Assembly (NCBI GenBank): GCA_002897115.2
Contig: BCIH01000010.1
Coordinates: forward strand, 554,833-618,832
From: Prototheca cutis
Taxonomy: Eukaryota > Chlorophyta > Trebouxiophyceae > Chlorellales > Chlorellaceae
DNA length: 64,000 nucleotides
Direction: 5' to 3'
In this document: positions 44,242-64,000 of the stretch, in pieces
Layout of the letters: each line of letters opens with the position of its first letter
Position numbering within the stretch: position 1 is the stretch's first letter
Translations under genes and position numbers: made by a program
Notes under the pieces: generated by a model
Database searches by the model: none
What the model was told of the DNA's origin: nothing
The model's input: the letters and a program-made list of their open reading frames with translations, nothing else

Positions 44242-44576
44242 CAGCTGTCACAGGGCCGGACACAGCTCTCCAGTCGGCAGTGGGCCACCCCGCACGACAC
44301 ACTGCTGCCACGTGAGCATGACCTCGAAGGGAGGGCTGCACCGGCGGCTGCCCTGGGATGCGCACCGCAGGGGTGGCATTGAGGCGGCCGAGCACCCGCA
44401 AGAGGCACGCCTTCATGATGCGGCGCGGGTCGGAAGAGAAGACACCCACCCAGACGGTACGCCGGCATCAAGCGCAGCAGGTGCTCCAGGCAGGGNCGAG
44501 GCCGGTGGACGTGATGCCCCGCGGTTAACGGTGGCCCCCATCCAGCAGCAGCACTGCGCGCAACGCAAACAGCAGC

Positions 44577-44828
44577 ACCGCCCGGAACAAGTACGCCATC
44601 CTCAGATGCGACCGTTGTGGCGTGGTGTGGAACCGCGACGTCAACATGGCATGGAACATCCGCCACCTGGGGGAGAGACTGGTCCTGACCGGCGACAGGC
44701 CGCCGCCTTTTGACCGCAAAACCAAGCTCCCCCCCCTTGCACATCCCCTGCCTCCCAGGCGCTCCACCTGGTATGATTTCATCACCAAGATACTCCGCTG
44801 GCCCTGGTCTGCGGAACAGTACCATTGA
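44577..44828 (+). pseudogene. Fanzor/TnpB-like zinc-ribbon tail in repeat A
   Basis: Reads YAILRCDRCGVVWNRDV and then NMAWNIRHLGERLVLTGDR, followed by PPPFDRKTKLPPL, to a stop at 44828. CxxC followed by VVWNRDVN..xNI is the C-terminal zinc-ribbon and RuvC-III (Asp) signature of TnpB and Fanzor nucleases. Upstream in this frame a TAA occurs near 44525, and no RuvC-I/II block or first Cys pair could be found, so only the tail remains. Compared with copy B it has MAW where B has AAR in the RDVNAARNI motif, a sign of decay. Confidence 0.65.
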
Positions 44829-49741: not shown

Positions 49742-50224
49742 GTACTAGGATTCATCGTCTGGCTGAAGAGCTGTAGTGCCTGGTGCCGGTTGATGTCCAT
49801 AGTCAAAAAACGCCTTCTCCTCATCCTGCGTTGAAGCCGGACCATGGGAATGGATAATGCAGCCCTTGCATCGGACTGGTCGATGCGCCGGCTGTCACAG
49901 GGCCGGGGACAGCTTTCCAGTTGGCACCGAGCCGTCCCCGCACGACGCATTGCTGTCGTGTGAGCACGACCTCGAAGGGAGGGCTGCACTGGCGGCTGCC
50001 CTGGGATGCGCACCGCAGGGGTGGCATTGAGGTTGTCAAGCACGCGCAAGGGGCATGCCTCTGTGATGCGGCGCGGGTCAGAAGAGAAGACACCCACCCA
50101 GACGGTACGCCGGCATCAAGCGCAACAGGTGCTCTAGGCCGGGACGAGGCCGGTGGACGTGATGCCCCGCAGTCGATGGTGGCCCCCATCCAGCGGCAGC
50201 ACTGTGCGCAGCGCAAACAGCAGC

Positions 50225-50425
50225 ACCGCCCGGAACAAGTGCGCCATCCTCGAATGCCAGAGGTGTGGCGTGGTGTGGAACCGCGACGTCAACGCCGCGC
50301 GCAACATCCGCCACCTGGGGGAGAGACTGGTCCTGACCGGCAAAAGACCGCCGCCTTTNGATCGCAAAACCAAGCTCCCCCCCTTGCACGTTCGCCTCCC
50401 GGGCGCTCCACCTGATATGATTTGA
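50225..50425 (+). pseudogene. Fanzor/TnpB-like zinc-ribbon tail in repeat B
   Basis: Reads KCAILECQRCGVVWNRDV and NAARNIRHLGERLVLTGKR, then PPP.DRKTKLPPL, stop at 50425. It has an exact WNRDVNAARNI motif: the RuvC-III Asp and the zinc-ribbon Cys pair of TnpB/Fanzor proteins. An in-frame TAG lies near 50134, and the rest of a nuclease is not recognisable upstream, so the copy looks like an internally deleted element. One N at 50359. Confidence 0.7.
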
Positions 50426-62965: not shown

Positions 62966-63255
62966 GCGTCGGCATGCATTCAATGGTGCAACAGGTGCTG
63001 CGTGTATGGACAGGCCTGGGGGCGCCCAGACGTCCCTTTGGAACCCTGCCATCAATGTGGGAAAGAGCTGGGTGGGGCAAACGTGATCGGCAGGTACCGT
63101 GCAAGGCAAAAATAATGCAACCAGCTCAGCCAGCAACAGCGCCACATCACCCCGGGGGTTGCTGGGCATCACGGATGGCCCGAAAATTTTCACACTCTGC
63201 ATGGCAATAGGAAGGTGGATGACCATCTTAATGATGGACCACCTCCGGGACTGTT

Positions 63256-63364
63256 TTCCCTTCCCGGGCCAAGGAGCCCAGGGTTCCTTGCCCCGGGAAG
63301 GGAGCCCCCAGGGTTTCAACCCCCGGGGCTGCTTTCCCTTTCCGGGGAAGGGAAGGAGCCCCGG
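63256..63364 (-). ncRNA. two strong hairpins downstream of the Fanzor-like ORF (candidate guide RNA scaffold)
   Basis: Two adjacent inverted repeats just 3' of the minus-strand nuclease stop at 63410. Hairpin 1: arms 63258-63275 (CCCTTCCCGGGCCAAGGA) and 63284-63302 (TTCCTTGCCCCGGGAAGGG). Hairpin 2: arms 63326-63344 (GGGGCTGCTTTCCCTTTCC) and 63345-63363 (GGGGAAGGGAAGGAGCCCC). In TnpB and Fanzor systems the omega RNA is made from the region overlapping or following the 3' end of the nuclease gene, so position and structure fit. This is inference; the DNA could also be a terminal palindrome of a transposon or an unrelated repeat. Confidence 0.4.
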
Positions 63365-63409
63365 GAGNTCCCACCCCCATTGGAAGGCTATAACCTCCCA
63401 GGATGGATG

Positions 63410-64000
63410 TTACTGCGGCGCTGGGCGCTGGAAGCGGTCCGGCCGCTCGCCGGTCTTCCGCAGGCTCTGCACNATGTNCCTCATGTTCAGACACGCCATC
63501 AAGTCTCTGTTCCAGAGACGATGCTCGCCGTTCGGGGGGCGGCACTTCTCGTTGGTGCAGCGCAGCAGCCNGTGGCACACCACCTCGGGCGTCTGCTCCC
63601 TGCGGTACGGGNGTGGGTTGGGCACGCGGAGGAACGTCTCCACCGTGCACTCCTCGTGTTCGCAGGCCGGGCAGCGCTTGGAGGTGCGGAACTCGTCGAT
63701 GAGCACGACGTTGAACCCCGCCTTGACCAGCGCCCGCAGCAGCCCGACGTGTGGCATCGGCTCGTGGTAGCGTGCCGGGCCCGGCGAGCAGTCGCCGACG
63801 ACCAGCGTCGCGCCGTTCGCGAACTTGCGCAGGCGCGCGATGACCGCCGCGTAGGCCTTTTGCCGGTAAATGTACGCCCAAAGACGGAGCTTCCGGAAGA
63901 TGGGCTTGGCATAGTGCTTGCTGAGCGTCGCCTCGACTTGGCCGAACACGCGCAGGTACGCCAAGAAGTCTGCCACAGTGCAGGCCTTGGCCCCGTTGGG
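63410..64000 (-). CDS. Fanzor (TnpB-like) RNA-guided nuclease, C-terminal part, runs off the window
   Basis: An open frame from the right edge to a stop at 63410, about 196 residues. It shows the C-terminal RuvC and zinc-ribbon core of Fanzor/TnpB nucleases. A helical region comes first (TLSKHYAKPIFRKLRLWAYI), then TLVVGDCSPGPARYHEPMPH. FNVVLIDEFRTSKRCPACEH is the D-E-x-x-T-S-K-x-C-x-x-C block. After an insert (VETFLRVPNP.PYRREQTPE) comes LRCTNEKC and HRLWNRDLMACLNMR with the RuvC-III Asp. Four cysteines (CPAC and CTNEKC) would bind zinc. The tail GERPDRFQR matches RPPPFDR in the 1.8-kb repeats. N bases at 63367-63612 affect a few codons. RuvC-I and the N-terminus lie beyond the window. The open frame makes this the best-preserved copy, though activity is untested. 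Confidence 0.82.
   Translation of the reverse strand, partial: PNGAKACTVADFLAYLRVFGQVEATLSKHYAKPIFRKLRLWAYIYRQKAYAAVIARLRKFANGATLVVGDCSPGPARYHEPMPHVGLLRALVKAGFNVVLIDEFRTSKRCPACEHEECTVETFLRVPNPXPYRREQTPEVVCHXLLRCTNEKCRPPNGEHRLWNRDLMACLNMRXXVQSLRKTGERPDRFQRPAPQ

What the first reader, a model, noticed from the sequence alone, without database searches (positions are those of the whole stretch)
63410..64000. Well-preserved Fanzor-type RNA-guided nuclease at the right edge
Seen: an intronless open frame with DEFRTSKRCPAC, a second Cys pair and WNRDLMACLNM, the known C-terminal RuvC/zinc-ribbon signature of TnpB and Fanzor. Known: Fanzors are eukaryotic OMEGA nucleases, some of them programmable, and are patchy in algae. 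Inference: the gene is probably complete to the right and may be active, as no stop or frameshift occurs in about 590 bases.
Basis: partly seen in the sequence, partly recalled or inferred. Interest (0 to 1): 0.9.

Follow-up and report, generated by a model that had tools for sequence, protein, structure and literature searches.

The report
Fanzor1 nuclease gene in algal transposon
The end of the window holds the back part of a Fanzor gene, a eukaryotic relative of CRISPR nucleases, carried by a repeated mobile element in what looks like a colourless green alga; the gene type is known, but the element comes with many gene-less copies that keep the end where the guide RNA would be made.

Summary
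Window 63410-64000 (minus strand) encodes the last 196 residues of a Fanzor1 protein (PDB: Parasitella Fanzor1 E 8.7e-33, Spizellomyces Fanzor1 3.3e-20), with two of three catalytic acids and four zinc-ribbon cysteines. Openness is not evidence: longer unrelated frames overlap it. The gene has a predicted intron. Completeness is unknown: the window ends exactly at a 1,410-N gap; beyond lie an upstream exon and the element's other end. The gene sits in an element with terminal inverted repeats and TA target duplication (C10:617929-621189; right end at window 63097). In the 19.9-Mb genome a 121-aa piece matches 32 places, against 395 terminal-repeat matches. Eight fetched ~360-bp elements are just the first ~199 and last ~146 bp, like the "ghost" elements of Spizellomyces. 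Left flanks favour W[GC]TA over right flanks, suggesting a TAM. No transposase was found; RNA folding gave no support for a guide RNA. Fanzors are published in green algae, and one is the commonest Auxenochlorella repeat: a new member of a known kind.

The parts
63410..64000 (-). C-terminal 196 residues of a Fanzor1 protein (RuvC-II, zinc ribbon, RuvC-III), last exon; stop codon 63410-63412; continues past the window into an assembly gap
63692..63697 (-). Asp-Glu of DEFRTS; the Glu (63692-63694) aligns with catalytic E541 of SpuFz1
   Evidence: alignment; E541 named in PMC10432273; codon positions
63662..63673 (-). first zinc-ribbon cysteine pair CPAC
63542..63559 (-). second zinc-ribbon cysteine pair CTNEKC
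   Evidence: translation; positions counted by hand from it
63503..63511 (-). Asn-Arg-Asp of RuvC-III; the Asp (63503-63505) aligns with catalytic D606 of SpuFz1
63097..63409 (-). 3' untranslated part of the element between stop codon and right end; repeated widely in the genome
   Evidence: C10:617929-618240, 94% to the L048 copy; 325 first-look candidates, 40 scored
63257..63303 (.). near-palindrome inside the 3' untranslated part (GC-rich hairpin)
   Evidence: C10:618089-618135 also matches the query on the opposite strand, 87%
63097..63180 (-). last ~84 nt of the element: inferred omega-RNA scaffold region; by position only, not shown to be transcribed
   Evidence: 95% or more identical at 40 of 41 listed places (window copy included, over 76-82 of 82 nt); analogy with the 75-nt SpuFz1 scaffold (PMC10432273)
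63097..63117 (+). right-end terminal inverted repeat (1 mismatch to CCRTGCAGGGCAAAAATRATG), the only match with up to 3 mismatches in the window
63095..63096 (.). TA target-site duplication at the right end
63079..63094 (-). predicted guide of this copy (first 16 nt beyond the TA); inference
   Evidence: position only

Best explanation
The reading frame is the last exon of a Fanzor1 gene carried by a cut-and-paste-type element with ~21-bp terminal inverted repeats and a TA target duplication, in a streamlined, probably non-photosynthetic green alga. Shown by sequence: protein family, the three catalytic acids in ungapped relatives of this family, the zinc ribbon, the element ends, TA duplication, many copies, and short derivatives that keep only the two ends. 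Predicted: one intron. Inferred: an omega-RNA is made from the last ~75-150 nt plus TA, with a guide read from the flank beyond the right end; Fanzor loaded with it cuts the empty site (a flank carrying 5'-TGTA or W[GC]TA next to the target), helping the element persist or spread; an unidentified transposase moves it.
Confidence: 0.85

Rival explanations
1. The window copy is a dead remnant: a Fanzor1 gene already broken inside the gap, with the family maintained only as a passenger repeat.
For: Other copies are broken: L051 lacks most of the middle and L048 has a disrupted exon 1; dN/dS 0.64-0.93; the gap hides 1,410 bases.
Against: Both visible parts of this copy, 116 codons of exon 1 and the C-terminal 196 codons, are open, and the latter holds the catalytic Glu and Asp and all four cysteines; L048, L036 and L050 (L048 and L050 are 53 and 48% identical to L036) keep second exons of 649-704 codons without stops.
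Confidence: 0.35
2. The frame belongs to another zinc-ribbon family (bacterial TnpB, Fanzor2 or Cas12-like), or is a bacterial contaminant.
For: The only Pfam match is the generic PF07282 below its cut-off; Guillardia Fanzor1 does not stand above Cas12 chains in the fold comparison.
Confidence: 0.03
3. The short ends-only elements are ordinary MITEs kept only for transposase binding, and the conserved 3' end is not an RNA gene.
For: Internal-deletion derivatives keeping both ends are the usual outcome of DNA transposon decay (recalled); no folding signal.
Confidence: 0.45

Closest known systems
Spizellomyces punctatus SpuFz1 and its Spu-1 elements (PMC10432273; section 7 and passages read)
   Same: Fanzor1 protein, catalytic D-E-D, inverted-repeat element, ORF-less ghost elements keeping the region next to the right end, conserved dinucleotide left of the left end (CA there, TAM CATA; mostly TG before TA here); there 42 Fz loci and 134 ghosts
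   Different: Here a predicted intron, a low-complexity insert before RuvC-I, a longer 3' region (~312 nt), no RNA or cleavage data
Parasitella parasitica PpFz1 (PDB 9cf0; PMC11423790, passages read)
   Same: Best sequence and structure match over REC, RuvC and zinc ribbon
   Different: ATN TAM reported there; presence of the paper's FRI domain was not tested here; 34% identity over residues aligned
Fanzor-encoding repeat of the green alga Auxenochlorella (PMC12633428, passages read)
   Same: The most abundant repeat of a streamlined trebouxiophyte genome encodes a Fanzor
   Different: Called uncharacterized in the passage seen; whether it is the same family could not be tested (its sequence was not seen)
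Fanzor1 in Tc/mariner elements (PMC3627910, passages read)
   Same: Elements that encode Fanzor1 alone, with TIRs and TA target duplications
   Different: Those share TIRs with confirmed Mariner elements; no Mariner-type transposase was found here

Membership tests
Fanzor1 | Sequence homology to characterised Fanzor1 proteins | tested here: met
Fanzor1 | RuvC-II Glu before [TS]S, C4 zinc ribbon, RuvC-III Asp in NRD | tested here: met
   window ORF
Fanzor1 | RuvC-I Asp (SpuFz1 D383) | tested here: inconclusive
   hidden in the gap for the window copy; present in L036, L048, L050
Fanzor1 | Fold closest to Fanzor1 rather than TnpB/Fanzor2/Cas12 | tested here: met
   on relative L036 exon 2, not on the window copy; PpFz1 and SpuFz1 lead, GtFz1 ranks among Cas12 chains
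Fanzor1 | Carried by a eukaryotic transposable element with defined ends | tested here: met
Fanzor1 | omega-RNA transcribed from the 3' end with a guide from the flank | not testable with these tools
   only position and conservation; folding not above shuffles
Fanzor1 | RNA-guided DNA cleavage with a TAM | not testable with these tools
   flank asymmetry only
Tc1/mariner transposon | TA target duplication and TIRs | tested here: met
Tc1/mariner transposon | Own or related DDE/D transposase in the genome | tested here: inconclusive
   no PF13358 or PF03184 match; searches are exon by exon and the control did not ring

The most novel reading that the evidence does not exclude
A few Fanzor1 genes serve, in trans, a large population of gene-less elements whose right ends each make an omega-RNA with a private guide: an RNA-guided homing network in which ghost elements are amplified because they keep (and sometimes duplicate, as right-end/right-end fold-backs) the guide-RNA end. 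The left-flank TGTA bias would be the footprint of the TAM.
Probability: 0.15. Interest if true: 0.65.

Novelty: new member of a known kind. Interest (0 to 1): 0.42.

Why it matters
Fanzors are programmable eukaryotic nucleases, but what they do for their hosts and elements is open. In this small genome one Fanzor1 element family has coding sequence at up to 32 places and 289 right-end matches, with a TAM prediction computed from the flanks. In Auxenochlorella, a green alga that can be manipulated by homologous recombination, the most abundant repeat also encodes a Fanzor (PMC12633428, passages), so whether ghost elements home through Fanzor could be tested directly.

Tried and rejected
Pfam alone: too weak. 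Protein search with the whole L036 exon 2: the 8000 candidates scored gave no hit, probably because of its low-complexity insert; repeating it on residues 365-640 worked. RNA evidence: folding z-scores 0.24, 0.91, 0.35, -1.17, alifold with 1 compensatory pair of 22, and only sub-threshold Rfam matches, best E 0.0086 at 31.7 bits against a cut-off of 80.6: no support. Transposase: PF13358 none (control rang in 3 of 14 genomes), PF03184 none (control rang in none, so uninformative). Viral contigs: no relative of P0001 (one scan). Family B by PDB and protein search: no Fanzor chain (weak TnpB/Cas12f-type rows at E 0.6-0.7 only), no hit; probably because the frame reads through an intron and a simple repeat. 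A first flank test collapsed independent sites that shared six flanking bases and the TIR, and so lost the commonest flanks; it gave W[GC] 12 of 17 vs 10 of 31 (p 0.016), G 10 of 17 vs 13 of 31 (p 0.37), TG 6 of 17 vs 7 of 31 (p 0.50). One search repeats it keyed on 20 bases; left out there: one unclassified end (L081) and two of the 19 left-end fetches whose inner sequence proved to be right-end (L064, L070); only ends followed by the TA enter the ratios. On ORF-bearing copies and ends-only derivatives alone, one search gives W[GC] 10 of 11 vs 9 of 30 (p 0.0009) and TG 7 of 11 vs 6 of 30 (p 0.019). Right-end excess as fold-backs: of the 100 right ends listed (of 289), 29 have a facing left end within 5 kb, 4 a facing listed right end, 67 neither (the 189 unlisted right ends could not be considered), so most of the excess is unexplained.

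Full report
What is there. The frame at window 63410-64000 lies on the minus strand, ends in a stop at 63410-63412 and is open to the edge: 196 codons, 4 of them ambiguous because of single Ns. Length and openness prove nothing here: unrelated frames of 262, 256 and 223 aa overlap the same bases. Homology does: phmmer against PDB gives P. parasitica Fanzor1 at E 8.7e-33 and S. punctatus Fanzor1 at 3.3e-20. The Glu of DEFRTS and the Asp of NRD align with SpuFz1 E541 and D606, two of the catalytic residues named in PMC10432273 and PMC11423790 (passages read). The third, the RuvC-I Asp, would lie to the right.

The edge. The window is C10:554833-618832 of a 19.9-Mb genome in 23 contigs. C10:618833-620242 is a run of 1,410 Ns, so the window stops exactly at an assembly gap. 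Beyond it, on the same strand, an open stretch of 116 codons (C10:620591 down to 620244) resembles the N-terminal parts of the homologues P0013 (E 4e-8) and P0002 (5e-6), and weakly PpFz1 (0.45). In relatives without gaps there (L048, L049, L050, L051) this exon is separated from the second exon by 137-215 bases. A GT lies at the exon-1 end (three bases after it in L049) and an AG at, or 9 bases before, the conserved start of exon 2; stops occur in all three frames of the interval in three relatives and in two frames in L048. So an intron is predicted; no transcript was seen. The very long frames that one search reports for some copies (up to 4,907 aa) come from N runs.

The element. The close copies share a 3' end about 312 nt past the stop. 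The ends read TA|CCRTGCAGGGCAAAAATGATG ... CATTATTTTTGCCCTGCAYGG|TA. For the window copy the right end is window 63097 (C10:617929) and the left end C10:621189, about 3.26 kb including the Ns. TA flanks 26 of 29 left ends and 30 of 32 right ends checked. The TIR pattern with up to 2 mismatches occurs 395 times, reversed control 0. With 3 mismatches of 30, right ends number 289 and left ends 93, controls 0. Twelve short elements were fetched: eight of ~360 bp are the first ~199 plus last ~146 bp of the Fanzor element, one of ~600 bp also keeps a piece of the coding end, and three of ~100 bp are right-end fold-backs. These were picked from the pattern listing because two facing ends lay close together, so they are not a random sample. 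SpuFz1's host has 42 Fz loci and 134 ghosts (PMC10432273, section read).

Guide RNA and TAM. The last 82 nt (TA included) of the window copy are matched at 95% identity or more, over 76-82 nt, at 40 of the 41 places that one search lists, the window copy included (314 first-look candidates, 40 scored). By analogy with SpuFz1 (75-nt scaffold, guide from the flank) and with the reported use of the target duplication as scaffold (PMC10711439, passages), the omega-RNA would run to window 63097, include TA, and read a guide leftwards from 63094. Folding gives no independent support. Left flanks carry W[GC]TA at 21 of 26 ends against 9 of 30 right ends of ORF-bearing and ends-only elements (p 1.8e-4); TG alone 15 of 26 vs 6 of 30 (p 0.0055). 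Over all 155 exact TIRs with TA: 30 of 37 left against 60 of 118 right (p 0.0011; ends sorted there by one TIR base only, and the right set includes fold-backs). The class was chosen after looking, and target preference of the unknown transposase could contribute.

The host. PF00504 (light-harvesting) has no match (control rang in 1 of 14; exon-by-exon search, so absence is not proven), while a bacterial-type ribosomal protein L6, read as the plastid one, sits beside L048 (4.6e-24, 85.1 bits, fragment below the model's cut-off). With the genome size and GC this suggests a colourless alga of the Auxenochlorella-Helicosporidium-Prototheca group; the guess Prototheca is recalled and not tested. 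A paper on Auxenochlorella reports that its most abundant repeat encodes a Fanzor (PMC12633428, passages). Searches 'Fanzor'+'Prototheca', 'Fanzor'+'MITE' and 'Fanzor'+'ghost'+'transposon' listed no title or abstract on this element; that covers only the held open-access library, and only listings were seen.

Verdict. A genuine Fanzor1 gene end in a multi-copy TA-duplicating TIR element; an ordinary member of a known kind, with a rich set of ends-only derivatives and a testable TAM prediction.

Noticed in passing
window 44529-44828 (+) and 50138-50425 (+); L001-L008: A second Fanzor/TnpB-like family, several of whose copies end in WYDFITKILRWLWPAEQHH or close to it; it makes up part of the 97 PF07282 matches and seems to have an intron between the RuvC-II Glu and the zinc ribbon. 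Two C-terminal remnants lie in the window; the first ends ...AEQYH, the second stops earlier.
   Followed up: partly
L049 (C4:1442000-1451999): Three diverged Fanzor1 copies (70-73% identity) lie within about 7 kb of each other in mixed orientation.
   Followed up: no
window 63251-63404: Very GC-rich inverted repeats in the 3' untranslated part give sub-threshold Rfam matches; their role is unknown.
   Followed up: partly
genome-wide: Right ends of the Fanzor element outnumber left ends about three to one, and 67 of the 100 listed right ends have no facing left end or listed right end within 5 kb.
   Followed up: partly
L048 2325-2481 and L009: Upstream of exon 1 lies a second, ~70% similar copy of the start of exon 1, so the exon start may have been duplicated in the element.
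   Followed up: no
window (47 Ns in all); L018-L047: Isolated Ns occur in these repeats and large N runs begin inside or beside many Fanzor copies: the repeat probably broke the assembly.
   Followed up: no
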